Assembly: GCA_038380435.1 (NCBI GenBank)
Contig: JAWZYU010000019.1
Coordinates: 15,773,801-15,837,800, forward strand
Length of the DNA stretch: 64,000 bases
Source of the DNA: Ryuthela nishihirai
Taxonomy: Eukaryota > Arthropoda > Arachnida > Araneae > Heptathelidae
Direction: 5' to 3'
The number at the start of each line of letters is the position of its first letter. Position 1 is the first letter of the stretch. Below the pieces are notes generated by a model. That model did not search any database. It was not told where the DNA came from and was given only the letters and a program-made list of their open reading frames with translations. The position numbers and the translations under genes were made by a program. Below, piece after piece: positions 22,630 to 48,192 of this stretch.

Positions 22630-22830
22630 ATGAAGATTTCGAAAGATTATGTCATTTATAGAGATGAAAATAATTTAAAGAAAAACAGTTACTATCCAAT
22701 TTGTAAACGTTTTAAAAATGTAAACGTTTCAAAGATGATAGGTTGCATTGCCGCCTTTCTTGCCGCCTTCTTTGCCGCCCTTTTAATTATGCATAATCGC
22801 CGGATTATTCACTTTTACCGTAACATATAA
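22630..22830 (+). CDS. Small single-span membrane protein, hypothetical
   Basis: A 66-residue frame. The N-terminal 35 residues are Lys/Asn/Tyr-rich, then MIGCIAAFLAAFFAALLIM forms a clear ~19-residue membrane helix followed by basic HNRR, suggesting a cytoplasmic tail. The frame runs into the 6-bp target site of the palindromic element, and the last base of its TAA is the element's first base. Before the insertion it would have ended a few codons later. Small membrane proteins are common in large DNA-virus-like elements, and its position opposite the minus-strand Polinton genes fits the host Polinton. No homologue is recognised. Confidence 0.4.
   Translation: MKISKDYVIYRDENNLKKNSYYPICKRFKNVNVSKMIGCIAAFLAAFFAALLIMHNRRIIHFYRNI
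22824..22829 (+). other. Target-site duplication CATATA (left)
   Basis: This 6-mer directly precedes the AGTAGTATCG terminus of the palindrome. The identical 6-mer follows the other end at 37,082. Six-base duplications are characteristic of Maverick/Polinton integrases. Confidence 0.85.
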
Positions 22831-22871
22831 GTAGTATCGTCACACCCCACCGATCCCCCACTAGTGCTTTC

Positions 22872-22960
22872 CCCTATGACGTCACCGACCACGGCCCTTA
22901 TGACGTCACCGACCACGCCCTATGACGTCACCGACCACGCCCCTCCCCTATGACGCAACA
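22872..22960 (+). promoter_or_regulatory. CRE-like TGACGTCA repeats at the element tip
   Basis: Three close copies of TATGACGTCACCGACCACG lie within ~75 bp of the tip, followed by CATTACGTAACATGCC. The mirror set is at about 36,950-37,040. TGACGTCA is the palindromic site of CREB/ATF-type factors. Repeated sites in terminal repeats could serve transcription or terminal-protein/replication binding. Function is inferred only. Confidence 0.5.
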
Positions 22961-23534
22961 TGCCGTAATCATTACGTAACATGCCACGCCCCTTTATTAA
23001 TAATTCCTCCCCCTTTATTAAACCCCCTTTCCCCTCAGTGGCGCCACCTGTTGACAGTGAGAAGTACTATTTTCCCAAAAAAACCCTATTTTTATTCTAA
23101 TTCTTCGATTTTTGATTTCCCCCTTTATAAAAAAAATTCCTCCCCCTTATGAAAAAACCCCTGGCGTCATCTGGTGCCTGTGAGGAACACTAATTCTCCA
23201 AAAACCCTTATTTTAATTCTTTGATTTCCCCCTCCTATTAAAAATTACTCCCCCCTATTAAAAATTTCTTCCCCCTTATGAAAAAACCCTGATGCCTTCT
23301 GTTGACAATGAAGAGTACTATTTTCGGAAAAACCTCCTTATTTTAACTCTAATTCCCGATTTTTCTTTATTTTGTCCCAATGGTTGACCTATATTTTAAG
23401 CCCTCCCCCTTATGAAAAACCCTCTGGTTGACCATTTTAAGGCCCCACTCCTTCACTCGGCTGATGCAAGTCTCAGAATAATTGCATGGAACGATTGACT
23501 GGTCTTAGAATAATTGTACAGAAAAGGATGATAC

Positions 23535-24600
23535 AAAATTCCTTAGTAATTAAACACTCATCAAAATTCCCTTACCTCTATTAAAAATCATCCTACAGTT
23601 GAAACTCATTTTACTCTTACTGTTTCCATAGAAAATACCATAGGGTGAAATTAATAATGGTTTAAATTATTCGTAGGGGTGACATGTTAAATCTGCTTTT
23701 AGAACACACGTCTGCAGTGGAAAAATTTTCAAACTCCGTTAATCAACTCCCTAGTAATTAAACACTCGTCAAAATATTCCTCACCTTTATTAAAATCACT
23801 CCACGGTCGAAAAAAAATTCAGTTTTTCTGTAGATGTGTTTCACCGGAAAAAAAAAAAAAATCGTCCCTCGCTCTGTGGATTCCGTCCGACTGTCTTGGG
23901 TTCCCGGACTATACCGTGTACTTGCTGTGGCTTAGATGCGGGTCAGATTTTTCAGATATTATAGCATTCTTTATAACTAGCTTTTTCTATGTATTTCTTA
24001 CATCAAAACCAGCACTACCACTGAACTCTTTTGAATGCGGATCTCAAATTGTAAATCAAACTCGCAAAGCTGTATTTATCCCACCAAGACGGCTAAACGA
24101 TTTTCTTATAATTAAAATTCCCTAGTAATTAAACACGTCAAAATATTCCTCACCTTTATTAAAATCACTCCACGGTCGAAATAAAAATCAGTTTTTCTGT
24201 AGATGTGTTTCACCGGAAAAAAAAAAAATCGTCCCTCGCTCTGTGGATTCCAGGACGCACGGGAATACGCCTTGTACTTGCTGTGGCTTAGATGCGGGTC
24301 AGCCATTTCAGATATTAACCTAGCTTTTTCTTACATCAAAGCCAACACTAGCACTGAACTCTTTTGAATGCAGATCTCAAATTGTAAATCAACTCACAGA
24401 GTTGTATTTATTCCTTAGTAATTAAAATCCTTTGCTATTCATTTAGCCAGGACGACTAAACGATTCCTTTATAATTAAAATTCCCTGCTATTAAACTCCC
24501 TAGTAATTAAACACTCATCAAAATTCCCTTACCTTTATTAAAAAACCATCGTACGGTTGAAATAGTCTGTAGATGCGTTTTATCGAAAAAAAAAAACTTC
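23535..24600 (+). repeat. Degenerate ~370-bp repeat array in the arm
   Basis: Recurring order: CCCTAGTAATTAAACAC, then ATTCCTCACCTTTATTAAA, CTGTAGATGTGTTTCACCGG, AAAAAAAATCGTCCCTCGC, GCTGTGGCTTAGATGCGGG, GCACTGAACTCTTTTGAATG. The phrase begins near 23,539, 23,748, 24,116 and 24,497, and the copies at 23,748 and 24,116 are the most complete. It is mirrored at about 35,310-36,375. Confidence 0.75.
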
Positions 24601-25080
24601 TTCTCGGCAACGAGAGTCGAACGCACTACCCACAGCTTCATTCTGTCAACTCCTAACAAGAACCAACCTGCAATGGAAAAGGCATTCCTGAAGTCGTACG
24701 TGGAGTCATGCCCACACGTGTCCGTTTACCGGTCAGGTAGCAACGAAACATCTCGTGACACAATCGCCCTGGGAGGTTGAGTGTCCAGCGCTCAGCAGTG
24801 TGATGACTCATACGATGTTGTTCTCTGAGGGTAGGTGACGTCACAACAAGGGGAAAGTAACGTGGAGTGACCAGCGAGTGACACGTATCAGAAGACTGAG
24901 CACTAGGGATGTTTAATCTTCAGTATAATTTTACACAGTGTGTTAGGATTAACAACTCTTATAGCATAGTTATTGCGGGTAGGCTCCCTCTCCACTTTTA
25001 AAATTTAGATCTTACATCGACAGTCTTTTCATATACGTATTTTTATAACCATTTTAAAACCAACACTTATTTCTTTTATC

Positions 25081-26548
25081 CCTAGCGATTACTGGTTGTT
25101 GCATTTTTTACTAGAAGAAACCCTACCCCTGCAGTAGCAGCCCCCGCAGAAAATAAAAAATGCTATCGGGCGAAAAATTAATAAAAATCTGATTTTATTT
25201 GTCGTGATGAAAAATATTGATGGGGTAATAGGTTCGACTTAAAAGACTTCGTGTTCGGATCCTCACCACGGACAACCTCTCGCTGACGGACGGTTAAACC
25301 CTACGAAATTATTCCAAACGGGGAATCACAAGGTTTTTATTGACGAATGAATCTTGGACCTGTACTGCTTCCGTACATCGTGAAAACCCACTCACAGCCT
25401 TGAACCGTGTTCCCAATTTCCTTTACTAAGTCACTTCAAAAAACATTGTGATTGCAAAAGTATGACTAACTGTTTTATTACGCCGCGTTTTAAAAATACT
25501 TATTACTGCTGTATCCGCGGTACGGGAGAGTAACACTGTTCGAAGAAAAATCAGGTAAAACAGTTTTTAAAAAAAAAATCGTTTCCTCCGTCGTTTGCCT
25601 ATGTCTCATCACGCGGGTGAAAAAATATTTTTTTGTACGAGGTAGAATGTTAAAAGTACGTCGCGTGAAAAAACTTTAGTCCCATCACGAATGCACATTA
25701 ATGGATAAGGGAGGTCGTAGTTTAATACTTCAGCTATAAAAAATAATACAATGTCTCACGCACCCCTCTCAACTTGTCTACGCTAATCCGCTGAAATTTT
25801 ATTTGCAACGGGTCCCTAGCGATTACTGGTTGCTGCATTTTTTACTAGAAGAAACCCTACCCCTGCAGTAACAGCCCCCGCAGAAAATAAAAAATGCTAT
25901 CGGGCGAAAAATTAATAAAATCTGATTTTATTCGTCGTGATGAAAAATATTGATGGGGTAATAGGTTCGACTTAAAAGACTTCGTGTTCGGATCCTCACC
26001 ACGGACAACCTCTCGCTGACGGACGGTTAAACCCTACGAAATTATTCCAAACGGGGAATCACAAGGTTTTTATTGACGAATGAATCTTGGACCTGTACTG
26101 CTTCCGTACATCGTGAAAACCCACTCACAGCCTTGATCCGTGTTCCCAATTTCCTTTACTAAGTCACTTCAAAAAACATTGTGATTGCAAAAGTATGACT
26201 AACAGTTTTATTACGCCACGTTTTAAAAATACTTATTACTGCTGTATCCGCGGTACGGGAGAGTAACACTGTTCGAAGAAAAATCAGGTAAAACAGTTTT
26301 AAAAAAAAATCGTTTCCTCCGTCGTTTGCGTATGTCTCATCACGCTGGTGAAACCGGGTGAAAAAATATTTTTTTTGTACGAGGTAGAATGTTAAAAGTA
26401 CGTCGCGTGCAAAAACTTTAGTTCCATCACGAATGCACATTAATGGAGTAGAGAGGTCGTAGTTTAATACTTCAACTATAAAAAAATAATACAATGTCTC
26501 ACACACACCTCTCAACTTGTCTACACTAATCCGCTGAAATTTCATTTG
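25081..26548 (+). repeat. 734-bp tandem duplication in the arm
   Basis: CCTAGCGATTACTGGTTG begins at 25,081 and again at 25,815, and the two units are nearly identical. A third, clearly diverged version of the same sequence follows at about 26,700-26,960. The mirror copies lie at about 33,363-34,830. A 130-codon frame in one unit is broken in the other, so I read the unit as noncoding. Confidence 0.85.
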
Positions 26549-28886
26549 CAACGGAGGCTGATACTTCGAATCCGCTATATGTTCCGGAAGCTGCAGTGGA
26601 ATGCATGGCCCCTGCTGAATGCTACGCTATCAGAAGTCCATGTGGCTGTCACGTTCTCCAAGCGCTCAGAATATTACTATACTTATAACTGATCTAAAGT
26701 CCGTTTTAATCAATACTTATTTCTTTCAACTCTGCGACTATTGGGCTGGCACATTTTCACTAGAAGGACCGCCTCACAGTGGCAATCCCGCAGAAAAAAT
26801 TAATAAAAGGAAAAAGTCTGATTTTATTCCTCCTGATGAAAAATATTGAAGGTAATAGGGTCGACCTAAAAGGCCCGTGTTCGGATCCTTGCCCCGAATG
26901 GTTTTTAACAAAAGTCCTACGAAATTAAAAACTATCCCGTTACACGACGGCGTTGTTTAAAAATACTTATTACAGCTGTATCCTCAGCAAACTCTTTCCT
27001 AGGAAGTAACGCTACTCGATGCAGTCCCAGTTACATGCTTTTACCGGGTAAAGACTGTGCGCCAGAATGTTAAAAGTAGAATTCATACGTTTCCGTAAAA
27101 AAAAAAAAAAAAAAAAAACTTTAGTTCCTGCTTAAAGGAGTATGGTTCGATTCAGGAAGAATAGGATTTGACCTCGTGCATTAGAAAAGGGAACAAATCC
27201 GTCCCCGGTGTCCTTTGTTAGGTTGTAGTATTAGTATCCTTATACAAGCTCACTTCAAATTTTCATATGATATTCTGGGGTTGAGTTTCAACCTTTTTAT
27301 TTTTTCCAACCGCGATAATGCGCAGTTTTCTGCGGAACGCGAGCGACTTCGACGCCAAGGACGACCCGCACTAAACGGTACGACCGTGCACTAGAAAACC
27401 GTGAACGGACTTGTGTGAAACGTAATGTACAGAGCTTGACAACAGTAATGTAGACTGGGATCCTCGCTCACTATACTATCATAACCATCGAGAAATTATC
27501 AAATATGAATAGACCTCTGTAAAGTTCCTACCCCACAATCTTCTGAGTTCATTCCCCGGTCGATGCTGTCAGGATCACAAGGGATGTTTTACACATTCAA
27601 CGACTTTTTCTGACATTCGCTAATCAAAGTGTCTATCTACACATCAGACTTGTCATTACATCGACAAACTACGTGTCCATAGGCTGAGTAAGCATTTAGA
27701 ATGAAAAATTGAGTCTGCTTCACGACACATATTCGTAAAACGCTCATTAATTATTTTGTGAGAGAAAGCATGCATAAAGTTCAAACACTAATACATCTCC
27801 CCTTTCTAAAAAATCTGAAAAACTCACAGGAAAACAACAATATTTCCGTGAAAAATTAGGTCCCTGAATCGAGCCCTAGTTCGGCGTTCACTGACTTCAA
27901 CCACCGATGAAACTTAACGTAAGCTCTCTCGCGGTTAGTTCAAGGTGCTTTCACACGCTCTTTTCAGAGTTCCTGGCCAACCTACTACGTTTCAATAAGC
28001 GCATAAGTGTGTGTGTGATGGTGGCTAGCTACAAACACAAGTTTCGCTACAATATAACACTGAGATGTCTGTTTAGTTATTTTTCTCTATTTCTATACTA
28101 GTGGTACAGTGCGAAAGTGGTTAGCACACGTTTTTTATATGTATCCTGTTTGGAAATAACACTGTCTATGGACCATTACTCCTGTACATACCATAAGCAT
28201 AATACCTCGCGATTCTAAGAGTCCCCCGAACCTTTATCTAATATTATGATATTATATTATGGTATATTAGGTATTAATCTTATTTTTGTAGTTCAACGGA
28301 GTGCTTTGAGCTTGCTCGACCGCTGTCATGGGTTGGACCGCTAGCGGCCCACATATTTAATCCAGAATTAGTACATGCAAACGTTTTCTTTTGTAATCGT
28401 ATCAGGTGTAGAGCAGAACAGGATGCTTCAATCATCAGGACAAACAATATTGCAGAAGTGAGAAAGAGAAGCTACAGGAAAGCACACTACCTGCAATCAT
28501 CACCTCAAAACAACTAAGACAGAGGGCGCCACGTGCAGGGTTGAAAAGCAGTTCATAACAATGGTTTAACCATTCATTTTTTTTTAAGTATTAGGATATT
28601 CATGTTACAATTTCTTACAACAGCGTTCATAGCTAGTGAAGACACAAGTCAGCAACATTCACACCTCTGTGTAAGCACACGAATATTACATTTCAACAAC
28701 GTACACTTTTCGTGTGAGTATGTGAATATTACATTTTAGCTGTATGTGCACTAGACGTTCAGTTGCGAAGAATATTTAAAAACATCAGTGCAAACTCACT
28801 GAAGCGTGTCTCTTTCTTGTGTCTCTCCATATCTATATACTATTCTTATGAGCACAAAAGATAGAACTTTCGAAGTAAGATGAAGC

Positions 28887-29504
28887 ATGTATCGGTTTAA
28901 AAAAAAGATTTTGAGCTTTTCACCAACGCCATCTAGGGACAACAATGTTGACTGTCTGATTCAAGCAATCTATGAATATGTAGGAGAATGTTTCTCTGAT
29001 CTTATGCAAAGTATATTCTTGTGTGGTGTATGGTATTATTCAACGGATGTCTTTCTAAGTGTATGCACATATCCGTGCGATGGATTAAGTTTTTTCTCAC
29101 ATACTTGTTTCGCCTCTGTAATTGTATGCTTTCACGTTTCTGAGTGTGTGCGTATGTTTCTGTGTGCGGGCGAGTGTGTGTGTGTGTGTATGTTTCTGTG
29201 TGCGGGCGACTGTGTGCGTGAGTATGTTTTCATGTTTGTTTCGCTGAATCTGATATGTGTATACGTCTTCATGTCTCTCTCGGTGTGTCTGTATGTGTAT
29301 ATGTTACCGTATGCAAGAATAAACATATTGTCTTACGGACACTTGCTCGCTACAGAAGAAGCTAACAATTTACAAACCTCGTCAGATCGGTATTATAGCT
29401 CTATTAGGAAATCTCATCGAAAAGTCACTAAACAGATAAGTTTACTAAAGATGCACGCTTGTATACAATTTTTCAGATTCTTTTACCTTTCTCGATTCTG
29501 TTAA
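28887..29504 (+). CDS. 205-codon ORF, Cys-rich, unknown (left arm)
   Basis: The frame starts MYRFKKKILSFSPTPSRD. It has an N-terminal part of ordinary composition, and its middle is encoded by a TG-rich repeat giving ECVCVCMFLCAGDC-like residues. It ends 56 nt from the stop codon of the convergent axis ORF. A TATATAC-containing stretch lies ~70 nt upstream. It could be a compact viral gene that absorbed a microsatellite or a chance frame. No domain is recognised, and the mirror copy is at 30,405-31,022. Confidence 0.3.
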   Translation: MYRFKKKILSFSPTPSRDNNVDCLIQAIYEYVGECFSDLMQSIFLCGVWYYSTDVFLSVCTYPCDGLSFFSHTCFASVIVCFHVSECVRMFLCAGECVCVCMFLCAGDCVREYVFMFVSLNLICVYVFMSLSVCLYVYMLPYARINILSYGHLLATEEANNLQTSSDRYYSSIRKSHRKVTKQISLLKMHACIQFFRFFYLSRFC

Positions 29505-29559
29505 GTAGAACAATGAAATAGCATTGCAGGAAAAAATCTTTTATTCATACACTAAGAAA

Positions 29560-30000
29560 TTACAAGGACGACCCATCAGATATAGAACAGAAATTAGTAA
29601 CACTATTACATTTATTTAGTATATGTTCAGAGGCGCGCACCAGTTCGTCATACACTTTGTTTAGTAATATAGGAAAGTGTAGCATGTAGGAATCTTCAAC
29701 TCCTGCCTCTTCCACAAAAAGTTTAGCGATATCGCTTAAATGAATGTTTCTCACTGCTTCGGCGAAACGGGATATGGCCACACACGAATGGTGAAGCTGA
29801 CTTGAATGATCTACTTCACCCCCAATACAGTTCGTACGTAGAATCCGAAAAATTTCTTTTCTGACCAGTGTATTTAATGTTTTTCTGAAACTTAGCTTTG
29901 CTCTCTGATCGTGCAGTTCAGCATTAGACAGTCTTCGAGTAAGAGATGTAGATAATTCGACATCTCTTACTCGAAGACTGTCTAATGCTGAACTGCACGA
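29560..30000 (-). CDS. Polinton-type unknown ORF, truncated at the axis (left copy)
   Basis: An open frame without an ATG. Reading inward from the axis it encodes LTRRLSNAELHDQRAK..., then AVRNIHLSDIAKLFVEEAG and VYDELVRASEHILN, and stops. An AATAAA polyadenylation signal sits about 15 nt past the stop codon. The C-terminal ~75 residues align by eye with the ORF at 48,949-49,323, sharing AVR-(I/L)-(L/I)-DIA--FV--A and D-L-RA--. The N-terminal part is missing because the palindrome axis lies inside the gene, and the first ~15 codons come from the opposite arm. The expressed form, if any, is unknown. Confidence 0.55.
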   Translation of the reverse strand, partial: SCSSALDSLRVRDVELSTSLTRRLSNAELHDQRAKLSFRKTLNTLVRKEIFRILRTNCIGGEVDHSSQLHHSCVAISRFAEAVRNIHLSDIAKLFVEEAGVEDSYMLHFPILLNKVYDELVRASEHILNKCNSVTNFCSISDGSSL

Positions 30001-30349
30001 TCAGAGAGCAAAGCTAAGTTTCAGAAAAACATTAAATACACTGGTCAGAAAAGAAATTTTTCGGATTCTACGTACGAACTGTATTGGGGGTGAAGTAGAT
30101 CATTCAAGTCAGCTTCACCATTCGTGTGTGGCCATATCCCGTTTCGCCGAAGCAGTGAGAAACATTCATTTAAGCGATATCGCTAAACTTTTTGTGGAAG
30201 AGGCAGGAGTTGAAGATTCCTACATGCTACACTTTCCTATATTACTAAACAAAGTGTATGACGAACTGGTGCGCGCCTCTGAACATATACTAAATAAATG
30301 TAATAGTGTTACTAATTTCTGTTCTATATCTGATGGGTCGTCCTTGTAA
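29909..30349 (+). CDS. Polinton-type unknown ORF, truncated at the axis (right copy)
   Basis: Exact mirror of the frame on the other strand, overlapping it in antisense across the axis (29,909-30,000). The stop is at 30,347-30,349 with AATAAA at 30,364-30,369. Transcription of both copies from a shared centre would give divergent transcripts, whereas each copy runs convergently into the 205-codon ORF of its own arm. Confidence 0.55.
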   Translation, partial: SCSSALDSLRVRDVDNSTSLTRRLSNAELHDQRAKLSFRKTLNTLVRKEIFRILRTNCIGGEVDHSSQLHHSCVAISRFAEAVRNIHLSDIAKLFVEEAGVEDSYMLHFPILLNKVYDELVRASEHILNKCNSVTNFCSISDGSSL

Positions 30350-33300
30350 TTTCTTAGTGTATGAATAAAAGATTTTTTCCTGCAATGCTATTTCATTGTT
30401 CTACTTAACAGAATCGAGAAAGGTAAAAGAATCTGAAAAATTGTATACAAGCGTGCATCTTTAGTAAACTTATCTGTTTAGTGACTTTTCGATGAGATTT
30501 CCTAATAGAGCTATAATACCGATCTGACGAGGTTTGTAAATTGTTAGCTTCTTCTGTAGCGAGCAAGTGTCCGTAAGACAATATGTTTATTCTTGCATAC
30601 GGTAACATATACACATACAGACACACCGAGAGAGACATGAAGACGTATACACATATCAGATTCAGCGAAACAAACATGAAAACATACTCACGCACACAGT
30701 CGCCCGCACACAGAAACATACACACACACACACACTCGCCCGCACACAGAAACATACGCACACACTCAGAAACGTGAAAGCATACAATTACAGAGGCGAA
30801 ACAAGTATGTGAGAAAAAACTTAATCCATCGCACGGATATGTGCATACACTTAGAAAGACATCCGTTGAATAATACCATACACCACACAAGAATATACTT
30901 TGCATAAGATCAGAGAAACATTCTCCTACATATTCATAGATTGCTTGAATCAGACAGTCAACATTGTTGTCCCTAGATGGCGTTGGTGAAAAGCTCAAAA
31001 TCTTTTTTTTAAACCGATACATGCTTCATCTTACTTCGAAAGTTCTATCTTTTGTGCTCATAAGAATAGTATATAGATATGGAGAGACACAAGAAAGAGA
31101 CACGCTTCAGTGAGTTTGCACTGATGTTTTTAAATATTCTTCGCAACTGAACGTCTAGTGCACATACAGCTAAAATGTAATATTCACATACTCACACGAA
31201 AAGTGTACGTTGTTGAAATGTAATATTCGTGTGCTTACACAGAGGTGTGAATGTTGCTGACTTGTGTCTTCACTAGCTATGAACGCTGTTGTAAGAAATT
31301 GTAACATGAATATCCTAATACTTAAAAAAAAATGAATGGTTAAACCATTGTTATGAACTGCTTTTCAACCCTGCACGTGGCGCCCTCTGTCTTAGTTGTT
31401 TTGAGGTGATGATTGCAGGTAGTGTGCTTTCCTGTAGCTTCTCTTTCTCACTTCTGCAATATTGTTTGTCCTGATGATTGAAGCATCCTGTTCTGCTCTA
31501 CACCTGATACGATTACAAAAGAAAATGTTTGCATGTACTAATTCTGGATTAAATATGTGGGCCGCTAGCGGTCCAACCCATGACAGCGGTCGAGCAAGCT
31601 CAAAGCACTCCGTTGAACTACAAAAATAAGATTAATACCTAATATACCATAATATAATATCATAATATTAGATAAAGGTTCGGGGGACTCTTAGAATCGC
31701 GAGGTATTATGCTTATGGTATGTACAGGAGTAATGGTCCATAGACAGTGTTATTTCCAAACAGGATACATATAAAAAACGTGTGCTAACCACTTTCGCAC
31801 TGTACCACTAGTATAGAAATAGAGAAAAATAACTAAACAGACATCTCAGTGTTATATTGTAGCGAAACTTGTGTTTGTAGCTAGCCACCATCACACACAC
31901 ACTTATGCGCTTATTGAAACGTAGTAGGTTGGCCAGGAACTCTGAAAAGAGCGTGTGAAAGCACCTTGAACTAACCGCGAGAGAGCTTACGTTAAGTTTC
32001 ATCGGTGGTTGAAGTCAGTGAACGCCGAACTAGGGCTCGATTCAGGGACCTAATTTTTCACGGAAATATTGTTGTTTTCCTGTGAGTTTTTCAGATTTTT
32101 TAGAAAGGGGAGATGTATTAGTGTTTGAACTTTATGCATGCTTTCTCTCACAAAATAATTAATGAGCGTTTTACGAATATGTGTCGTGAAGCAGACTCAA
32201 TTTTTCATTCTAAATGCTTACTCAGCCTATGGACACGTAGTTTGTCGATGTAATGACAAGTCTGATGTGTAGATAGACACTTTGATTAGCGAATGTCAGA
32301 AAAAGTCGTTGAATGTGTAAAACATCCCTTGTGATCCTGACAGCATCGACCGGGGAATGAACTCAGAAGATTGTGGGGTAGGAACTTTACAGAGGTCTAT
32401 TCATATTTGATAATTTCTCGATGGTTATGATAGTATAGTGAGCGAGGATCCCAGTCTACATTACTGTTGTCAAGCTCTGTACATTACGTTTCACACAAGT
32501 CCGTTCACGGTTTTCTAGTGCACGGTCGTACCGTTTAGTGCGGGTCGTCCTTGGCGTCGAAGTCGCTCGCGTTCCGCAGAAAACTGCGCATTATCGCGGT
32601 TGGAAAAAATAAAAAGGTTGAAACTCAACCCCAGAATATCATATGAAAATTTGAAGTGAGCTTGTATAAGGATACTAATACTACAACCTAACAAAGGACA
32701 CCGGGGACGGATTTGTTCCCTTTTCTAATGCACGAGGTCAAATCCTATTCTTCCTGAATCGAACCATACTCCTTTAAGCAGGAACTAAAGTTTTTTTTTT
32801 TTTTTTTTTTTTACGGAAACGTATGAATTCTACTTTTAACATTCTGGCGCACAGTCTTTACCCGGTAAAAAGCATGTAACTGGGACTGCATCGAGTAGCG
32901 TTACTTCCTAGGAAAGAGTTTGCTGAGGATACAGCTGTAATAAGTATTTTTAAACAACGCCGTCGTGTAACGGGATAGTTTTTAATTTCGTAGGACTTTT
33001 GTTAAAAACCATTCGGGGCAAGGATCCGAACACGGGCCTTTTAGGTCGACCCTATTACCTTCAATATTTTTCATCAGGAGGAATAAAATCAGACTTTTTC
33101 CTTTTATTAATTTTTTCTGCGGGATTGCCACTGTGAGGCGGTCCTTCTAGTGAAAATGTGCCAGCCCAATAGTCGCAGAGTTGAAAGAAATAAGTATTGA
33201 TTAAAACGGACTTTAGATCAGTTATAAGTATAGTAATATTCTGAGCGCTTGGAGAACGTGACAGCCACATGGACTTCTGATAGCGTAGCATTCAGCAGGG

Positions 33301-36300
33301 GCCATGCATTCCACTGCAGCTTCCGGAACATATAGCGGATTCGAAGTATCAGCCTCCGTTGCAAATGAAATTTCAGCGGATTAGTGTAGACAAGTTGAGA
33401 GGTGTGTGTGAGACATTGTATTATTTTTTTATAGTTGAAGTATTAAACTACGACCTCTCTACTCCATTAATGTGCATTCGTGATGGAACTAAAGTTTTTG
33501 CACGCGACGTACTTTTAACATTCTACCTCGTACAAAAAAAATATTTTTTCACCCGGTTTTACCAGCGTGATGAGACATACGCAAATGACGGAGGAAACGA
33601 TTTTTTTTTAAAACTGTTTTACCTGATTTTTCTTCGAACAGTGTTACTCTCCCGTACCGCGGATACAGCAGTAATAAGTATTTTTAAAACGTGGCGTAAT
33701 AAAACTGTTAGTCATACTTTTGCAATCACAATGTTTTTTGAAGTGACTTAGTAAAGGAAATTGGGAACACGGATCAAGGCTGTGAGTGGGTTTTCACGAT
33801 GTACGGAAGCAGTACAGGTCCAAGATTCATTCGTCAATAAAAACCTTGTGATTCCCCGTTTGGAATAATTTCGTAGGGTTTAACCGTCCGTCAGCGAGAG
33901 GTTGTCCGTGGTGAGGATCCGAACACGAAGTCTTTTAAGTCGAACCTCTTACCCCATCAATATTTTTCATCACGACGAATAAAATCAGATTTTATTAATT
34001 TTTCGCCCGATAGCATTTTTTATTTTCTGCGGGGGCTGTTACTGCAGGGGTAGGGTTTCTTCTAGTAAAAAATGCAGCAACCAGTAATCGCTAGGGACCC
34101 GTTGCAAATAAAATTTCAGCGGATTAGCGTAGACAAGTTGAGAGGGGTGCGTGAGACATTGTATTATTTTTTTATAGCTGAAGTATTAAACTACGACCTC
34201 CCTAATCCATTAATGTGCATTTGTGATGGGACTAAAGTTTTTTCACGCGACGTACTTTTAACATTCTACCTCGTACAAAAAAATATTTTTTCACCCGCGT
34301 GATGAGACATAGGCAAACGACGGAGGAAACGATTTTTTTTTTAAAAACTGTTTTATCTGATTTTTCTTCGAACAGTGTTACTCTCCCGTACCGCGGATTA
34401 CAACAGTAATAAGTATTTTTAAAACGCGGCGTAATAAAACAGTTAGTCATACTTTTGCAATCACAATGTTTTTTGAAGTGACTTAGTAAAGGAAATTGGG
34501 AACACGGTTCAAGGCTGTGAGTGGGTTTTCACGATGTACGGAAGCAGTACAGGTCCAAGATTCATTCGTCAATAAAAACCTTGTGATTCCCCGTTTGGAA
34601 TAATTTCGTAGGGTTTAACCGTCCGTCAGCGAGAGGTTGTCCGTGGTGAGGATCCGAACACGAAGTCTTTTAAGTCGAACCTATTACCCCATCAATATTT
34701 TTCATCACGACAAATAAAATCAGATTTTTATTAATTTTTCGCCCGATAGCATTTTTTATTTTCTGCGGGGGCTGCTACTGCAGGGGTAGGGTTTCTTCTA
34801 GTAAAAAATGCAACAACCAGTAATCGCTAGGGATAAAAGAAATAAGTGTTGGTTTTAAAATGGTTATAAAAATACGTATATGAAAAGACTGTCGATGTAA
34901 GATCTAAATTTTAAAAGTGGAGAGGGAGCCTACCCGCAATAACTATGCTATAAGAGTTGTTAATCCTAACACACTGTGTAAAATTATACTGAAGGTTAAA
35001 CATCCCTAGTGCTCAGTCTTCTGATACGTGTCACTCGCTGGTCACTCCACGTTACTTTCCCCTTGTTGTGACGTCACCTACCCTCAGAGAACAACATCGT
35101 ATGAGTCATCACACTGCTGAGCGCTGGACACTCAACCTCCCAGGGCGATTGTGTCACGAGATGTTTCGTTGCTACCTGACCGGTAAACGGACACGTGTGG
35201 GCATGACTCCACGTACGACTTCAGGAATGCCTTTTCCATTGCAGGTTGGTTCTTGTTAGGAGTTGACAGAATGAAGCTGTGGGTAGTGCGTTCGACACTC
35301 GTTGCCGAGAAGAAGGTTTTTTTTTTCGATAAAACGCATCTACAGACTATTTCAACCGTACGGTGGTTTTTTAATAAAGGTAAGGGAATTTTGATGAGTG
35401 TTTAATTACTAGGGAGTTTAATAGCAGGGAATTTTAATTATAAAGGAATCGTTTAGTCGTCCTGGCTAAATGAATAGCAAAGGATTTTAATTACTAAGGA
35501 ATAAATACAACTCTGTGAGTTGATTTACAATTTGAGATCTGCATTCAAAAGAGTTCAGTGCTAGTGTTGGCTTTGATGTAAGAAAAAGCTAGGTTAATAT
35601 CTGAAATGGCTGACCCGCATCTAAGCCACAGCAAGTACAAGGCGTATTCCCGTGCGTCCTGGAATCCACAGAGCGAGGGACGATTTTTTTTTTTTCCGGT
35701 GAAACACATCTACAGAAAAACTGATTTTTATTTCGACCGTGGAGTGATTTTAATAAAGGTGAGGAATATTTTGACGTGTTTAATTACTAGGGAATTTTAA
35801 TTATAAGAAAATCGTTTAGCCGTCTTGGTGGGATAAATACAGCTTTGCGAGTTTGATTTACAATTTGAGATCCGCATTCAAAAGAGTTCAGTGGTAGTGC
35901 TGGTTTTGATGTAAGAAATACATAGAAAAAGCTAGTTATAAAGAATGCTATAATATCTGAAAAATCTGACCCGCATCTAAGCCACAGCAAGTACACGGTA
36001 TAGTCCGGGAACCCAAGACAGTCGGACGGAATCCACAGAGCGAGGGACGATTTTTTTTTTTTCCGGTGAAACACATCTACAGAAAAACTGAATTTTTTTT
36101 CGACCGTGGAGTGATTTTAATAAAGGTGAGGAATATTTTGACGAGTGTTTAATTACTAAGGAGTTGATTAACGGAGTTTGAAAATTTTTCCACTGCAGAC
36201 GTGTGTTCTAAAAGCAGATTTAACATGTCACCCCTACGAATAATTTAAACCATTATTAATTTCACCCTATGGTATTTTCTATGGAAACAGTAAGAGTAAA

Positions 36301-37081
36301 ATGAGTTTCAACTGTAGGATGATTTTTAATAGAGGTAAGGGAATTTTGATGAGTGTTTAATTACTAAGGAATTTTGTATCATCCTTTTCTGTACAATTAT
36401 TCTAAGACCAGTCAATCGTTCCATGCAATTATTCTGAGACTTGCATCAGCCGAGTGAAGGAGTGGGGCCTTAAAATGGTCAACCAGAGGGTTTTTCATAA
36501 GGGGGAGGGCTTAAAATATAGGTCAACCATTGGGACAAAATAAAGAAAAATCGGGAATTAGAGTTAAAATAAGGAGGTTTTTCCGAAAATAGTACTCTTC
36601 ATTGTCAACAGAAGGCATCAGGGTTTTTTCATAAGGGGGAAGAAATTTTTAATAGGGGGGAGTAATTTTTAATAGGAGGGGGAAATCAAAGAATTAAAAT
36701 AAGGGTTTTTGGAGAATTAGTGTTCCTCTCAGGCACCAGATGACGCCAGGGGTTTTTTCATAAGGGGGAGGAATTTTTTTTATAAAGGGGGAAATCAAAA
36801 ATCGAAGAATTAGAATAAAAATAGGGGTTTTTTGGGAAAATAGTACTTCTCACTGTCAACAGGTGGCGCCACTGAGGGGAAAGGGGGGTTTAATAAAGGG
36901 GGAGGAATTATTAATAAAGGGGCGTGGCATGTTACGTAATGATTACGGCATGTTGCGTCATAGGGGTGTGTGTGGTTGGTGACGTCATAGGGCATGGTCG
37001 GTGACGTCATAAGGGGCGTGGTCGGTGACGTCATAGGGGGAAAGCACTAGTGGGGGTTCGGTGGGGTGTGACGATACTACT
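29960..37081 (-). repeat. Palindrome right arm
   Basis: Mirror image of the left arm. The 22-nt homopolymer is the same length in both arms. Observed differences are mainly in the outer ~130 bp (for example CCGATCCCC against CCGAACCCC) plus a few scattered single changes, such as one that makes His versus Tyr in the frame at 33,359-33,751. Confidence 0.92.
30405..31022 (-). CDS. 205-codon ORF, Cys-rich, unknown (right arm)
   Basis: Mirror copy of the frame at 28,887-29,504 and apparently identical in protein. Identity tells nothing about selection here, because the noncoding parts of the arms are equally alike. Confidence 0.3.
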   Translation of the reverse strand: MYRFKKKILSFSPTPSRDNNVDCLIQAIYEYVGECFSDLMQSIFLCGVWYYSTDVFLSVCTYPCDGLSFFSHTCFASVIVCFHVSECVRMFLCAGECVCVCMFLCAGDCVREYVFMFVSLNLICVYVFMSLSVCLYVYMLPYARINILSYGHLLATEEANNLQTSSDRYYSSIRKSHRKVTKQISLLKMHACIQFFRFFYLSRFC

Positions 37082-37087
37082 CATATA
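37082..37087 (+). other. Target-site duplication CATATA (right)
   Basis: Identical to 22,824-22,829 and directly after the CGATACTACT terminus. Removing the element and one copy of the 6-mer restores an ordinary AT-rich site between the membrane-protein ORF and the minus-strand Polinton genes. Confidence 0.85.
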
Positions 37088-37470: not shown

Positions 37471-37901
37471 CTAAGACGCCTTTTTTGATGTCCCGTCGAA
37501 GATTTTTTCCACTGCGTAGAGTTCAGGAAGATTTATTTTCTGCAGTTCTCGGCTAGAGAAAGTTCCTCGTATCATGTTACCATCACTATCTACCACTTCG
37601 TAAACGGGAGGTGTTCTAGGTACGATTCTTTTCACTCCAAATATCTCTCGAGTCCACTGTTGCGACGCACCTTTCTTGAATGGTAGCTTCAAACTGCTGA
37701 GCCTCACGTGATCTCCCTCTTTAAAACGGACAGGGTCTGCCTGCTTTGGCGCTCCGTATAATCTCTCCCAGACGACACTCTCATTAAAGAGATCCACGTC
37801 CTTGGGAGCAAGGTCATGAGCTCGATATTTGGAAGCATTATAACCCTTCACTATGGAATCCAGAACGTGCAAGAATCTAAAATATTTATGTTTAGTGAAA
37901 T
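37471..37901 (-). pseudogene. Maverick/Polinton integrase, C-terminal part
   Basis: This continues the integrase interrupted by the Gypsy element. The frame is open from the Gypsy edge (about 37,901), with LHVLDSIVKGYNASKYRAH matching the region just after the catalytic core. It then has an SH3/chromo-like tail: FKEGDHVRLSSLK, QQWTREIFGVKRI, PPVYEVVDSDG and GTFSSRELQKI. In the family this tail binds DNA or chromatin. The N-terminal part is at 47,524-48,070. Both halves look intact, so the Gypsy insertion is the main visible lesion. Confidence 0.88.
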
Positions 37902-38895
37902 TGCCGTGAACCCCCCTTTTGTATTAGGGCGGTCCGACATTAATGTTTGATTCCTTCCTAATATTTTGGCCGTGCTTCAATTTCGCTGATTACCGAAAGG
38001 GCACTCTTTCTATAGTAACCCAGAAACTTTACTTACAATAATGAAAAATGGAGAGGAGTCATGTTTTACCAGTTACACGCAATTTATTAACAAACAGTAT
38101 TATTTAACATTCTCTTTCACAACTTACGCCCTTCGTCGGGGTACAGCTTCTTTTACACACGCGTTTAGGCTATGTCAGCCTTTACAATGGGGAGCCAAGA
38201 AATTTCTCTGGCAAAGTCCATCTGTTAAGTCCGAGCTACTAGCTCCAAAGTCATGTTCCGTAGTCAGTTTTCTGGAACACGGTGGTGGTGGCAGGCAGAC
38301 AACAGTATTTGAGGGGAAAACACAGATTTACGAATGATGGTGACCCATACCTGTTTCAAGTAGCCACTACAGAAGCCTTGGATGGGGAGTCTGGCACCGT
38401 CGACTGGGAGTTCATCTGCCTAATCTCGGCCAGACAAAGGCGGTTTGCGCTCTTTCCTCGCAAGCGCTAGCATTGTTCGTCGGGCGAAGGGAAAGAGACT
38501 TCTCGACGGAACTGCGAGACGAGAGGAGACAACTCACCAAGACGAGAGACACAAGACAAAAGACACACTTTCCTCTCACTCTTCAACCTTGCCGCATTTT
38601 CCCGTCGCGACCTCTAGTGGTGGTCAGCGAAGAAGGCTGATGCGGGCACTGGCTATTGGTTGTGGATGCTTGAGCCAAAAATCGCTCCGTCTTCTCGGGG
38701 CCTTTGATGTCGAGTGCGATTCCAGTCCAGAGGTTTCTACACCCGGGGGCGAAGTCGCCACCGGTGTCAACTGGCGTCAGGGACAAATTCGTGGAAGCTT
38801 GGTGACCAAAATAAGTCTTTGTTCTCACATTAGAAAAGCATATCCTAGGACCTTTTTGGCCCAAGTCGTGTCCGCAGGATCAATTTCTGTGGGCA
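37902..38895 (-). repeat. Gypsy 3' LTR
   Basis: 994-bp copy of the LTR also present at 46,532-47,523. On the minus strand it starts TGCCCACAG and ends CACGGCA. It differs from its partner by scattered substitutions and small indels, a few percent by eye, so the insertion is not recent. Open frames inside are shadows. Confidence 0.93.
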
Positions 38896-41308
38896 CGACA
38901 CACCTATCACCCTTTAGGGAGAGGGGGAATAGGCGGGGCAGGGAAAAGGTCTCTGACTGACTGCAGATAAGGGTGTATCCATCGGATATGGGAGAAGGCG
39001 ATCTCCTGGGTCACACATCAATAGTGCTGGAATTTTTCCTTTTTCCTCAATGAGTCCAGGTGTCACGAGGTGTAGTATGAGGTGCACTAAAACTCCAAAG
39101 GGTCACAGTTCGGGTCCGCCTGGACCACTCTAGTGGGCGTCGGTCTGCAGGAGGCTCCACGGCACATGAAACGGAAAAAGAAAAGGGAAAAAGGGTCACA
39201 AATCTGGTTTTCCACATGTACTTAATTCACAAGCACACAGTCTGTCTCTGTACCTACCGTCACGTGACTCACTGATACATAGAAACTTCAAAATCTCTGG
39301 GGCCATTTGGACCCAGCACAGGTTACATTCACAATTGGTACATACATTGCATTTATTCATTCTTACTTCCTATGTTTTACATGGTAATAATTTCAAAGTT
39401 AAGTTTTTTTTTTCAATTAATTCAGTCCTGGCTATTTGCCAAATACTCCGAACAACATATTCCGCAATTAATTTCTTTCTACAAGTTCCACTAATTCATA
39501 AGACACTAGTTTGAACTAATTCTTTTCTCACAATTAATCCAATTTATACTCTTTGTCAATAACTCGGACAGGTAATCCTTCATTTTAACCCATCTAGATA
39601 AACTGAAAATTCACAAGATAACCTTGTGTCACAATGCTTTAAATAATCTTCTGCCGTTAATTCATCTCTCTTTGATAATTCTAAAAATTACTTCTCAATG
39701 GATTCACTCCACTATGGCAACATCATTTTACTAAGTCGTTCTACAATAATACTCTAACATTCACTTCTCGGTCAACTCGTCCAATAATGACAGAATCATT
39801 TTACTAGGTCATTCCATAATGACAGTCAAAACACTTCTCAAAAACTCACTCTATAATAACAAAATTATTTTACCAAGTTACTCTTACAATGGTCGCCTAT
39901 AAACTCACTTCTCGATAAATTCATTTAATAATGACAGAATCACTTTACTAGGTCATTCCATAATGACAATCAAAACACTTTTCGAAAACTCATTCTATAA
40001 TAACAAAATCATTTTACTAAGTCACTCTTACAATGATCATCTAAAATTACTTCTCGATAAATTCTTTAATAATGACAGAATCACTTTACTAGGTCATTCC
40101 ATAATGACAATCAAAACACTTCTCGAAAACTCATTCTACAATAACAAAATTATTTTACCAAGTTACTCTTACAATGGTCGCCTATAAACTCACTTCTCGA
40201 TAAATTCATTCAATAACGACAGAATCATTTTACCAGGTCATTCCATAATGACAATCAAGACACTTCTCGAAAACTCATTCTATAATAACAAAATCCTTTT
40301 ACTAAGTCACTCTTTCAATGATCATCTAAAATTACTTCTCAAATCTCAAATCACTACTACTCAAGTTGAGGGCTTTGCATTAGGTCTACAATATTTCCAA
40401 TAGCAGCTTTGTTTCTTCCAGCCAATTGATTGATGGTAGCGCGCGTGTGTGTGTGTGTGTGTGTGGGGGGGGGTGTTGTGAAATGCCGTTGTGTCCATGT
40501 CGTTGCTCTTGCAGCTCATACCCCGGGACCGGGGATATAGGACGAGCGCCACGACATGATGTCATCTCTCCGGCGTGCTTCCTTCTCCGACTCATGGGGG
40601 GGGGGGGGGGGTTGCGTGCAGAACTGCAGCCTCTTCAGAGTCTCCCCAAATTGTCACCATTCCCGCGGGCGACCGGCTCGGCCACCGCACATGGAGAAAT
40701 TCTCGCGATTTCTCGCGTGAGCTTTCTATTGCTCAGACTCCACTGCTCCGCTGCGCTTGATAGCCGGAGGGGGGGGGGTGAGTGTGCTAGTGTGTGCATA
40801 CGTGTAAAGTCGGAGATCGTTGGGTACTGACGGACCAGGGGAGGGGGATTTCTTTGCTGCCCTGGGGCAATGCCTCGCGAAGGCGTCCCTTCGCAACGAC
40901 ATTAGCCCATGAGGTGAGGTTCTTTTCTTCGGGTTCGTCATATATCCCAGCATTCCGTGGTTTCAAGCGTCGTCTGCTTCAGGGCGGCCGCTGAGGCAAT
41001 GGAGGAGGGGGTGCTGATCCACCGGATTTTCTGACGTCATAGCAAGCCACGGTTTGTGAGGGTGTGTCAGCAGCAGTGGCTGGAGATGGCGCAACTCTTC
41101 TGTCTTGTGCACGTGGTCGAAGGTCGTACCGGTGTGGCTGACTGGTGGCTGCAGCGTGTGGTGGTGGCTGCAGCGTGTGGTGGCAGCTGTGAGCTTGCTG
41201 TGGCAGGGCGCGCCCGCGCAGCTGGCGCCGGACGGCCTGCGACATGATCCCGTGTGACTCGGGGTTCGATTCCCAGTCATCGTCTTCAGATTCTGGCTCA
41301 ATGATGGG
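38896..41308 (-). other. Gypsy 3' untranslated region
   Basis: 2.4 kb between the integrase and the 3' LTR without a supportable gene or envelope. It contains a minisatellite (39,680-40,345), a (GT)n tract (about 40,444-40,463) and several poly-G runs. Confidence 0.7.
39680..40345. repeat. ~142-bp minisatellite inside the Gypsy element
   Basis: Four to five units carry AATGACAGAATCACTTTACT, GGTCATTCCATAATGACA, AAACTCATTCTATAATAAC and AAATTACTTCTCGATAAATT. They alternate between two subtypes (CAATGGTCGCC and CAATGATCATC), so the higher-order period is about 285 bp. There is an internal ~70-bp sub-repeat. Confidence 0.9.
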
Positions 41309-44828: not shown

Positions 44829-44849
44829 AATGGGTGAATTTTCATCACT

Positions 44850-46531: not shown

Positions 46532-47523
46532 TGCCGTGAACCTCCCTTTTGTATTAGGGCGGTGCGACATTAATGTTTGACTCCTTCCTAATATTTTGGC
46601 CGTGCTTCAATTTTGCTGATTACCGAAAGGGCACTCTTTCCATAGTAACCCAGAAACTTTACTTACAATAATGAAAAATGGAGAGGAGTCATGTTTTACC
46701 AGTTACACGCAATTTATTAACAAAGAGTATTATTTAACATTCTCTTTCACAACTTACGCCCTTCGTCGGGGTACAGCTTCTTTTTCACCGTGTTTAGGCT
46801 ATGTCAGCCTTTACAATGGGGAGCCAAGAAATTTCTCTGGCAAAGTCCATCTGTTAAGTCCAAGTTATTAGCTCCAAAGTCATGTTCCGTAGTCAGTTTT
46901 CTGGAACACGGTGGCAGTGGCAGGCAGACAACAGTATTTGAGGGGAAAACACAGATTTACGAATGATGGTGACCCATACCTGTTTCAAGTAGCCGCTGCA
47001 GAAGCCTTGGATGGGGAGTCCGGCACCGTCGACTGGGAGTTCATCTGCCTAATCTCGGCCAGACAAAGGCAGTTCGCGCTCTTTCCTCGCAGGCGCTAGC
47101 ATTGTTCGTCGGGCGGAGGGAGAGAGACTGCTCGACCGGACTGCGAGACGAGAGGAGACAATTCACCAAGACAAAAGACACAAGACAAAAGACACACTTT
47201 CCTCTCACTGTTCAACCTTGCCGCATTTTCCCGCTGCGACCTCTAGCTGTGGTCAGCGTGGAAGGCTGATGCGGGCAGTGGCTATTGGTCGTGGACGCTT
47301 GAGGAAAAAATCGCTCCGCCTTCTCGGGGCCTTTGATATCGAGCGCAATTCCAGTCCAGAAGTTTCTACACCCGGGGGCGGAGTCACCACCGGTGTCAAC
47401 CGGCGTCAGGGACAAATTCGTGGAAGCTTGGTGACCAAAACAAGTCTTTGTTCTCACATTAGAAAAGCATATCCTAGGACCTTTTGGCCCAAGTCGTGTC
47501 CGCAGGATCAATTTCTGTGGGCA
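46532..47523 (-). repeat. Gypsy 5' LTR
   Basis: 992-bp partner of the LTR at 37,902. It would drive transcription toward lower coordinates. Its outer edge touches the integrase codon run KLWRYF of the host Polinton. Confidence 0.93.
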
Positions 47524-48070
47524 CGATAAAATAACGCCATAATTTTTCTCTCAGGGTTCGATTCAGTCTTTCTACCAGAGCAGCTTTCTTATCACTATAA
47601 GACACGAAGAAGTGAAGGATTTTTTCTTTTAGGAATATTTGAAAAACACGGTTTGTGAATTCTGTCCCCTGATCGATGTTTAGAGTCATGGGTTCACGAC
47701 CCTGTGCTAGAATCTGTTCAAATGCTTCTTTCACAGCAGTTCCTGCTTTCTTTTTCACAGGAACCGCCCACGCATAGTGAGATAAAATATCGATGACGAC
47801 TAATATGTATCCATAACCTTTATTAAATCGTGCAATATTTTTCACGAATATTAAATCCACCTGCCATTGTTCATCCAGACCTGCCACGTACGTTTGGTTC
47901 CTTCTGAATTTGGTCGTTGCCGGTCTGTGGAGAATGTACGTCTCTTGACCTGCTAACCATTCTCTGACTGACTTTGGATCCTGTCCATTACTCTGGGATA
48001 ATCGAGTCACCCCTCCATAGCTGCCAGGGTTCTTGGGATCGTAATAAGGTTTTTCTAACGCGTCGTTCAT
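47524..48070 (-). pseudogene. Maverick/Polinton integrase, N-terminal part with DDE core
   Basis: The start is the ATG at 48,068-48,070. YYDPKNPGSYGGV, REWLAGQETYILHRP and VAGLDEQWQVDL are hallmark blocks of Maverick integrases (F54H12.3-like). The catalytic triad is visible: Asp in QWQVDL, Asp in LNIDQGTEF and Glu in AALVERLNRTL. The Gypsy element cuts the gene right after KLWRYF, and the rest is at 37,471-37,901. The enzyme inserts Maverick DNA with a 6-bp duplication, the very length flanking the nearby palindrome. It starts ~120 nt after the PC4-like gene. Confidence 0.93.
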
Positions 48071-48192
48071 CGACCAGCATTAGCTTTACTTCTTTAATCC
48101 AGACCTCGATAGGAAGGGAGTCAGGCACATCTATAGATGTACGGTCTGCAGCCTCTTCACACAACTCTCTCGATGTGTAAAGGACCGGATGG

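What the first reader, a model, noticed from the sequence alone, without database searches (positions are those of the whole stretch)
22824..37087. A 14.25-kb near-perfect palindrome that integrated as one unit with Polinton hallmarks
Seen: the arms 22,830-29,949 and 29,960-37,081 are reverse complements with landmark sums constant at 59,909-59,912, so only a few indels occur in 7.1 kb. The ends are AGTAGTATCG/CGATACTACT and there is an exact 6-bp flanking direct repeat CATATA. Known: Maverick/Polinton elements end in AG...CT, make 6-bp duplications and are thought to replicate by protein priming as linear DNA. Inference: this is a foldback ('snapback') Polinton genome, like the symmetric defective genomes known for protein-primed linear viruses, captured by an integrase in trans. 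I am not aware of a described class of fully palindromic Polintons.
Basis: partly seen in the sequence, partly recalled or inferred. Interest (0 to 1): 0.96.

Follow-up and report, generated by a model that had tools for sequence, protein, structure and literature searches.

The report
Palindromic Polinton satellite transposon family
A 14-kb stretch of this eukaryotic genome reads the same on both strands because it is one of dozens of copies of a mobile DNA family, built on the ends of virus-like Polinton transposons, that inserts as a whole palindrome and likely copies itself through a hairpin form with borrowed Polinton enzymes.

Summary
The palindrome is real: arms 22,830-29,949 and 29,960-37,081, 22 mismatches, 7 indels, 10-bp loop, exact 6-bp duplication CATATA. 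It is not a one-off. In the window's own 3.11-Gb assembly, a search with our axis-side 2.1 kb gave 34 inverted pairs; 23 are full length with gaps of exactly 10 or 35 bp, and only 40 candidates were scored. A sister class with its axis in a truncated terminal repeat gives 32 more pairs. Three own-axis copies have different exact duplications (CATATA, CCCCTC, TACTTA); one sits in a SINE whose empty site is known. Ends match the Maverick motif (AGT)2//(ACT)2. Non-palindromic 17-kb relatives share these ends; one was shown to carry PolB and integrase. The axis ORF is the 5'-truncated end of a Polinton PC4-type gene. In 5 of 5 elements tested the two arms are each other's closest relatives. So the palindrome is inherited and mobile, and its arms are homogenised. 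I infer hairpin replication in trans, begun by an old fold-back; arm differences avoid the axis, so chromosomal repair may help. No reads were available.

The parts
22824..22829 (.). target site duplication CATATA, left copy
37082..37087 (.). target site duplication CATATA, right copy
22830..29949 (+). left arm of the palindrome, begins with the Maverick end motif AGTAGT
   Evidence: motif in PMC8097293 (passage)
29950..29959 (.). axis loop AGATAATTCG (10 bp); same axis, in either orientation, at other loci
29960..37081 (-). right arm of the palindrome, ends with ACTACT
22871..22944 (+). 22-bp tandem repeat near the left end, units with TGACGTCA
36972..37040 (-). mirror tandem repeat (period 24) near the right end, with TGACGTCA
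25079..26554 (+). 745-bp tandem duplication (units 25,079-25,811 and 25,813-26,554, 95.7% alike); used as outgroup
33356..34833 (-). mirror of the 745-bp tandem duplication
29563..30000 (-). axis ORF, 5'-truncated C-terminal part of a PC4-type Polinton protein (first Met at residue 106 of 146), stop followed closely by AATAAA
   Evidence: (read by eye)
29909..30346 (+). mirror axis ORF
37474..37923 (-). flank, not part of the palindrome: C-terminal piece of a decayed Polinton-type integrase
47477..48079 (-). flank: rve core piece of a decayed Polinton-type integrase
   Evidence: Pfam rve 3e-12; 59% over 172 aa to the integrase ORF of L015
48952..49365 (-). flank: decayed piece of a PC4-type gene of the older Polinton
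   Evidence: 33% over 111 aa, E 2e-14, to L015:6978-7808, which has a PC4 match

Best explanation
The window holds one copy of a multi-copy family of fully palindromic mobile elements with Polinton ends, which moves as a palindrome and likely replicates with the enzymes of autonomous Polintons through a self-annealed hairpin. Shown: the shared axis at dozens of loci, individual 6-bp duplications on the palindromic copies whose ends were read, relatives with the same ends, PolB and integrase in the same genome, and arms that are sisters within each element tested. Inferred: (1) at some time a nascent strand of a linear Polinton-type genome folded back inside a PC4-type gene and copied itself, giving a molecule with two identical ends; (2) protein-primed initiation at those ends, with PolB supplied in trans, propagates it; (3) each displaced strand is self-complementary, folds into an arm-length hairpin, and mismatches between the arms are erased there; (4) the integrase of an autonomous Polinton inserts it with a 6-bp stagger. 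A second class with its axis in a truncated terminal repeat points to at least one further fold-back.
For: Same axis: 34 inverted pairs among 77 matches, 23 full length with gaps of exactly 10 bp (13) or 35 bp (10). The three own-axis copies whose ends were read have exact, different duplications: CATATA, CCCCTC, TACTTA; the CCCCTC copy interrupts a SINE, and its two flanks rejoined align across the joint in 15 matches to SINEs of the window. Ends fit the Maverick motif. Of 12 facing end pairs in the genome, ours included, 10 have an exact 6-bp duplication, 1 has one mismatch, 1 has none. Autonomous relative: one 1261-aa ORF with DNA_pol_B_2 2e-40, a 444-aa ORF with rve 8.4e-15. Axis ORF 40% over 132 aa to a 320-aa PC4 protein of the family, E 1e-23, and without an early Met, so the axis cuts a gene. 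Arms are sisters in 5 of 5 elements, 0.05-0.60% within against 0.75-2.20% between. In 22 own-axis pairs (ours left out) bit scores of the two arms against our arm differ by 4.4 on average against 122 between elements; with C49 left out as well (21 pairs, mean 4.6), 0 of 20,000 permutations within axis class did as well. Lengths of the two matched arm pieces differ by at most 2 bp in 23 of 23 pairs, while plus-strand pieces range from 2,015 to 2,158 bp. Element C17 carries the same broken PC4 frame in both arms. Axis type follows sequence: gap-35 copies score 3,591-3,615, gap-10 copies 3,687 or more except C49 at 3,122.
Against: No reads, so no molecule spanning an axis was seen; no extrachromosomal form was seen. 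Differences between arms avoid the axis: over four full palindromes (ours, C17, C29, C30) the thirds from end to axis hold 26, 24 and 3 of 53 mismatches outside the loops (P 1.5e-6; without ours 2 of 31, P 5e-4). Homogenisation at replication followed by even mutation does not predict this; chromosomal conversion, cruciform repair or assembly polishing would. Ends and duplications were read for only 3 of the 23 full own-axis pairs. The palindrome holds no recognised PolB or integrase, so dependence on autonomous copies is inference. The own-axis copy C2 has arms of unequal total length, 7,166 and 6,973 bp. Seven of the 9 unpaired match pieces of the own-axis search were not read and could include a non-palindromic relative.
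Confidence: 0.57

Rival explanations
1. The palindrome moves as a palindrome, but its arms stay alike because of arm-to-arm gene conversion or cruciform repair in the chromosome after insertion, not because of a hairpin step in replication.
For: Arm differences avoid the axis in pooled data: 3 of 53 in the inner third over four palindromes; 1 of 22 in the inner half of the window copy. C30 has a cluster of differences at 3.06-3.56 kb, as conversion tracts could leave.
Against: Element C17 has one mismatch outside its loop in 6.7 kb and a shared frame break in both arms; C49, the most diverged full own-axis pair (92% to ours), has equal arm scores and lengths. None of this excludes fast conversion; both processes may act.
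Confidence: 0.26
2. Each insertion is an independent fold-back of a non-palindromic parent at a fixed hot spot; palindromes do not breed palindromes.
For: Arms are sisters within each element, as this would predict; a 7.1-kb non-palindromic unit exists for the terminal-repeat axis class (C20).
Against: No non-palindromic copy through our axis was identified, though 7 of 9 unpaired match pieces were not read. The two read (C9, C10) carry the axis loop and the start of the second arm, then a loss: C10 resumes further out in the second arm, C9 runs into other sequence. Axis variant (gap 10 or 35) goes with sequence lineage.
Confidence: 0.1
3. An ordinary Polinton derivative became palindromic after insertion by template switching or conversion from one end.
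For: The outer 360 bp of the window copy are more diverged than the rest, as old terminal repeats would be (9 of 22 mismatches, binomial P 6e-7; 7 of 20 events after collapsing a cluster, P 4e-5). Pooled over four palindromes 16 of 53 lie there.
Against: The same axis recurs at dozens of loci, and the three copies with ends read have different target duplications. The outer excess lies partly in a tandem repeat.
Confidence: 0.03
4. The palindrome is an assembly or sequencing artefact.
For: Fold-back reads and polishing across identical arms can make or sharpen palindromes (recalled); no reads were available; axis-proximal identity would fit polishing.
Against: Different flanks with exact duplications, an asymmetric loop present in both orientations, the same axis at many loci, private differences between arms.
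Confidence: 0.03

Closest known systems
Polinton/Maverick transposons
   Same: End motif (AGT)2//(ACT)2 and 6-bp duplications (passage of PMC8097293); the first 1.2 kb of our arm is 93-96% identical to one end of the four long non-palindromic copies (C5a, C7, C10, C19c), of which C10 was shown to carry PolB and integrase; a PC4-type gene shared with them.
   Different: No PolB, integrase or unique interior of its own was recognised; its genome is an inverted repeat from end to end. Polintons are described as typically 15-25 kb with PolB and integrase (passages of PMC6431247).
Snapback (self-complementary) defective genomes of AAV and, from memory, symmetric defective genomes of adenovirus
   Same: Fold-back duplication of one end, symmetric and asymmetric forms (passages of PMC8235507); C19a looks like an asymmetric form.
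   Different: Those were described as subgenomic particles in virus populations; here the palindrome is a heritable, multi-copy chromosomal lineage with its own insertions. AAV does not use a protein primer (recalled).
Foldback-like elements such as Galileo
   Same: Long terminal inverted repeats and high structural variety (passages of PMC4168063).
   Different: [quoted passage not shown] ends, duplication length and relatives differ here.
Ginger2 transposons
   Same: Integrase related to that of Polintons; AT-rich 6-bp targets (passages of PMC2836005).
   Different: Ginger2 ends are TGTNR and its targets RTATAY (same passages); ours are AGTAGT and CATATA, CCCCTC, TACTTA.

Membership tests
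Polinton/Maverick (autonomous) | (AG)3 or (AGT)2 end motif | tested here: met
   AGTAGT...ACTACT at 22,830 and 37,081; motif in a passage of PMC8097293
Polinton/Maverick (autonomous) | 6-bp target site duplication | tested here: met
   CATATA; also CCCCTC and TACTTA at two other own-axis copies
[quoted passage not shown]
   Pfam scan of 25 of the 35 arm ORFs of 50 aa or more: none reaches a family cut-off; the gene is present in the relative L014
Polinton/Maverick (autonomous) | rve-type integrase gene | tested here: not met
   None in the same 25 of 35 arm ORFs; present in the relative L015 and, decayed, in the flank
Polinton/Maverick (autonomous) | capsid genes and packaging ATPase | tested here: inconclusive
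   No such Pfam match in the 25 of 35 arm ORFs scanned, but Pfam named no capsid ORF in the relative L015 either and its ATPase only under the cut-off
Non-autonomous Polinton derivative | ends and internal gene remnants shared with an autonomous element in the same genome | tested here: met
   Arm 66-1,250 is 95% to L014; axis ORF is a piece of a PC4-type gene, a gene type also in L015
Snapback genome | one terminal region duplicated around an axis, no unique interior | tested here: met
Snapback genome | arises during extrachromosomal replication | not testable with these tools
   no reads or extrachromosomal DNA data
Galileo/Foldback (P superfamily) | 7-bp duplication | tested here: not met
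   6-bp duplications; 7 bp in a passage of PMC4168063
Ginger2 | TGTNR ends | tested here: not met
   AGTAGT ends; TGTNR in a passage of PMC2836005

The most novel reading that the evidence does not exclude
A lineage of Polinton satellites has an obligately palindromic genome: a protein-capped hairpin of one arm length is its replicating form, every displaced strand is its own template, and self-complementarity is the trait that lets it outcopy its autonomous helper. It arose at least twice in one host genome (axis in a PC4-type gene; axis in a truncated terminal repeat) and has spread to dozens of loci in each class.
Probability: 0.4. Interest if true: 0.93.

Novelty: new variant of a known kind. 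Interest (0 to 1): 0.86.

Why it matters
Polintons are thought to replicate as linear protein-primed DNA, but this is largely inferred from their genes (recalled; PolB noted in passages of PMC6431247). A family of palindromes that share an axis, carry their own 6-bp duplications and keep their arms alike is the footprint such replication could leave, and it makes the hairpin step testable by looking for snapback DNA. It also shows that very large palindromes with a 10-bp spacer can be heritable and abundant in a large genome, although such palindromes are usually held to be unstable (recalled). I saw no description of a fully palindromic Polinton lineage in the listings of my searches (Polinton with palindrome, foldback, hairpin, inverted duplication or head-to-head; Polinton structure; foldback and palindromic elements; 10-20 papers listed each), nor the word stem 'palindrom' in the main texts of three Polinton papers.

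Tried and rejected
Weak likeness of the axis ORF to the flank ORF 48,952-49,365 (BLASTP E 1e-4) was first not separable from chance: an antisense Gypsy ORF scored higher. It was settled only through relatives: the axis ORF matches the 320-aa PC4 protein and the flank ORF the 277-aa PC4 protein of the autonomous copy; the crossed comparisons are weak (flank ORF to the 320-aa protein 3e-4; axis ORF to the 277-aa protein 0.004).

Led nowhere: protein homologue searches with the axis ORF and the flank ORF, four viral-contig scans, an AlphaFold model of the truncated axis ORF (mean pLDDT 59) with a viral fold search without a match at E 0.001, period-3 signal of the axis ORF (stronger than 97% of arm windows but only 85% of flank windows), Pfam scan of 25 of 35 arm ORFs. 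The 206-, 155- and 140-aa arm ORFs have no Pfam match and the 206-aa one no codon signal.

Considered and dropped: Ginger2, Galileo/Foldback, post-insertion palindromisation, assembly artefact (see rivals). Reading the ends of ten more own-axis copies was not possible.
Full report
OBSERVATION. The window contains a near-perfect inverted repeat from 22,830 to 37,081. Self-BLAST gives 99.53% over 22,825-37,086. Alignment of the arms gives 22 mismatches, 7 indel events and a 10-bp loop, 29,950-29,959. The flanking 6-mers CATATA are identical. Inside the arms lies a 745-bp tandem duplication whose units differ at 32 of 746 columns, so the arms are far more alike than the repeats within an arm. In the 49.7 kb of flank, 32.6% of bases have another copy elsewhere in the flanks; no base of the palindrome matches the flanks. 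CpG observed/expected is 1.05 in the arm; 7.1-kb flank windows range from 0.57 to 1.09.

UNEVEN DIVERGENCE. Nine of 22 mismatches fall in the outer 360 bp (binomial P 6e-7, or 4e-5 for 7 of 20 after collapsing one cluster) and one in the inner half. Part of the outer excess lies in a 22-bp tandem repeat. With the 745-bp duplication as outgroup, changes there are private: six on the right arm, two on the left, one unresolved. The same lean is seen when four full palindromes (ours, C17, C29, C30) are pooled: thirds from end to axis hold 26, 24 and 3 of 53 mismatches outside the loops (P 1.5e-6; without ours 2 of 31 in the inner third, P 5e-4), and 16 of 53 lie in the outer 360 bp. This speaks against 'made alike once, then drifted evenly' and for an extra homogenising process near the axis, or for polishing.

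FLANKS. Right of the palindrome lies an old, broken Polinton: integrase pieces at 37,474-37,923 and 47,477-48,079, split by an LTR element, Gypsy-like by my reading of its ORFs and not Pfam-tested, with 95% alike long repeats at 37,898-38,898 and 46,528-47,526, and a PC4-type gene piece at 48,952-49,365. The palindrome's own duplication marks it as a separate insertion.

THE GENOME. After nine 'busy' answers the window's assembly (3.11 Gb, 1,680 contigs) was searched. The exact 19-bp terminus occurs 36 times: 12 facing pairs and 12 singles. Of the 12 pairs, ours included, 10 have an exact 6-bp duplication, C20 has one mismatch and C5b none. Four pairs (C17, C29, C30, ours) are full palindromes with arms 99.5-99.9% alike; C19a and C26 are partly palindromic; C5a, C10 and C19c are about 17 kb and C7 is 32 kb (only its ends were read), with terminal repeats aligned over 354-411 columns; C20 is 7.1 kb; C5b is 331 bp. 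In the 10 kb read from each of the 12 singles no further palindrome of this kind was apparent; one, L029, is a 1.49-kb element with duplication AACCCT.

AUTONOMOUS RELATIVES. The C10 copy carries a 1261-aa ORF with DNA_pol_B_2 (2e-40), a 444-aa ORF with rve (8.4e-15), an ATPase-like ORF (Pox_A32 0.0013, under its cut-off) and a 277-aa ORF with PC4 (1.3e-5). Ten ORFs were scanned in that call, nine of C10 and one of L025; five had a match, the fifth being the L025 ORF with PC4. Its left end matches our arm 66-1,250 at 95%. The ends fit the (AGT)2//(ACT)2 motif and 6-bp duplications reported for vertebrate Mavericks (passage of PMC8097293).

OUR AXIS IS SHARED. A search with 2,120 bp next to our axis returned 77 matches from 40 scored candidates (4,230 in the first look). 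They form 34 plus/minus pairs within 250 bp; 23 are full length on both sides, with a gap of exactly 10 bp in 13 and 35 bp in 10; the other 11 are partial, with gaps of 9 to 50 bp; 9 match pieces are unpaired. Two unpaired ones were read: both carry the axis loop and the start of the second arm; C10 then jumps to a point further out in the second arm, C9 runs into sequence without a match in the window. Seven were not read. Five other axes were read: the 10-bp loop lies one way in ours and C49, the other way in C2 and C16, and in C1 and C10 the 35-bp axis contains the same sequence extended around a 9-bp loop. Two further own-axis copies were read at both ends: C2, 14,149 bp, duplication CCCCTC inside a SINE, where the rejoined flanks align across the joint in 15 matches to SINEs of the window; and C6, 12,128 bp, duplication TACTTA, midpoint of the ends 1 bp from the axis.

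A SECOND AXIS CLASS. C17, C29 and C30 have their axis in an internal copy of the terminal repeat that lacks its outermost part, so they are inverted dimers of a C20-like 7.1-kb unit (the terminal-repeat match read by eye). A search with 592 bp next to that axis gave 72 matches from 40 scored candidates (1,342 in the first look): 32 pairs, 28 full length, 23 of these with a gap of exactly 16 bp; 8 unpaired. C19a joins the left arm at position 4,477 to the axis at a TTCA overlap, as an asymmetric fold-back or a later one-sided loss would.

ARMS EVOLVE TOGETHER. In a 2.0-kb region common to five palindromic elements and the C20 unit, the two arms are each other's nearest relatives in 5 of 5 (support 87-100); distances are 0.05-0.60% within and 0.75-2.20% between palindromic elements. 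For the 22 full own-axis pairs other than ours, arm scores against our arm differ by 4.4 bits within and 122 between; a permutation within axis class on 21 of them (C49 left out) reached the observed closeness in 0 of 20,000. Arm-piece lengths differ by 0-2 bp within 23 of 23 pairs, while plus-strand pieces range from 2,015 to 2,158 bp. C17 has the same PC4 frame break in both arms, and C29 and C30 keep a 320-aa frame in both.

THE AXIS GENE. The 146-aa ORF through our axis has its first Met at residue 106. It aligns to residues 186-317 of the 320-aa relative at 40% (E 1e-23); the PC4 domain of that relative is at residues 48-98, upstream of the aligned part, so the axis cut the gene. PC4 is known as a single-stranded-DNA-binding coactivator (recalled).

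MECHANISM. Direct: heritable palindromic state, movement as a unit where ends were read, homogenised arms, helper genes present. Inferred: a fold-back created the palindrome; protein-primed replication in trans spreads it; displaced strands self-anneal to hairpins, which both provide a duplex origin and erase arm differences; the helper integrase inserts it. Snapback genomes of AAV, symmetric and asymmetric, are the nearest described molecules I read of (passages of PMC8235507); those of adenovirus are recalled. The main open point is how much of the homogenisation happens in replication and how much in the chromosome; the pooled fall in differences towards the axis made me move some weight to the latter.

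LITERATURE. Listings of searches for Polinton with palindrome, hairpin, foldback, inverted duplication or head-to-head, for Polinton structure and for foldback or palindromic elements showed no paper on a palindromic Polinton lineage among the titles and abstract starts I saw; the word stem 'palindrom' does not occur in the main texts of PMC10120064, PMC12220804 and PMC12721341. Most subscription papers are not held, so this is not proof of absence.

Noticed in passing
window 37,898-47,526: Gypsy-like LTR element (by my reading of ORFs at 41.3-45.0 kb; long repeats 94.9% alike) inserted in the integrase gene of the older Polinton.
   Followed up: partly
L011; L034 and L036 near their starts: Short pairs of Polinton ends (331 bp in L011; a right end about 450-460 bp from the left end in L034 and L036) flanked by inverted, not direct, host sequence (TTTTGT or TTTTGC on the left, ACAAAA on the right); perhaps a different composite element.
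   Followed up: no
L025:5625-6584, L022:5829-6788, L015:6978-7808: A PC4-type gene is kept by non-autonomous and autonomous copies alike. Its role in this family is unknown.
   Followed up: partly
window 22,871-22,944 and mirror: Terminal tandem repeats carry TGACGTCA, an ATF/CREB-type site (name recalled), reminiscent of regulatory sites in adenovirus terminal repeats (recalled).
   Followed up: no
L014, around 2,834: Small hairpin with a 4-bp loop inside the autonomous Polinton copy C10.
   Followed up: no
G000 contig C210, 18,906-19,313 (+) and 98,433-98,840 (-): Two Polinton ends with equal scores about 80 kb apart in inverted orientation; perhaps a large inverted duplication or an assembly issue.
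   Followed up: no
L027/L028 (element C30), arm positions 3,064-3,557: A cluster of arm-to-arm differences in an otherwise near-identical palindrome, as a conversion tract from another copy might leave.
   Followed up: no
window 56,059-56,685: Decayed DNA transposon piece with a DDE_1 domain (5e-40).
   Followed up: no
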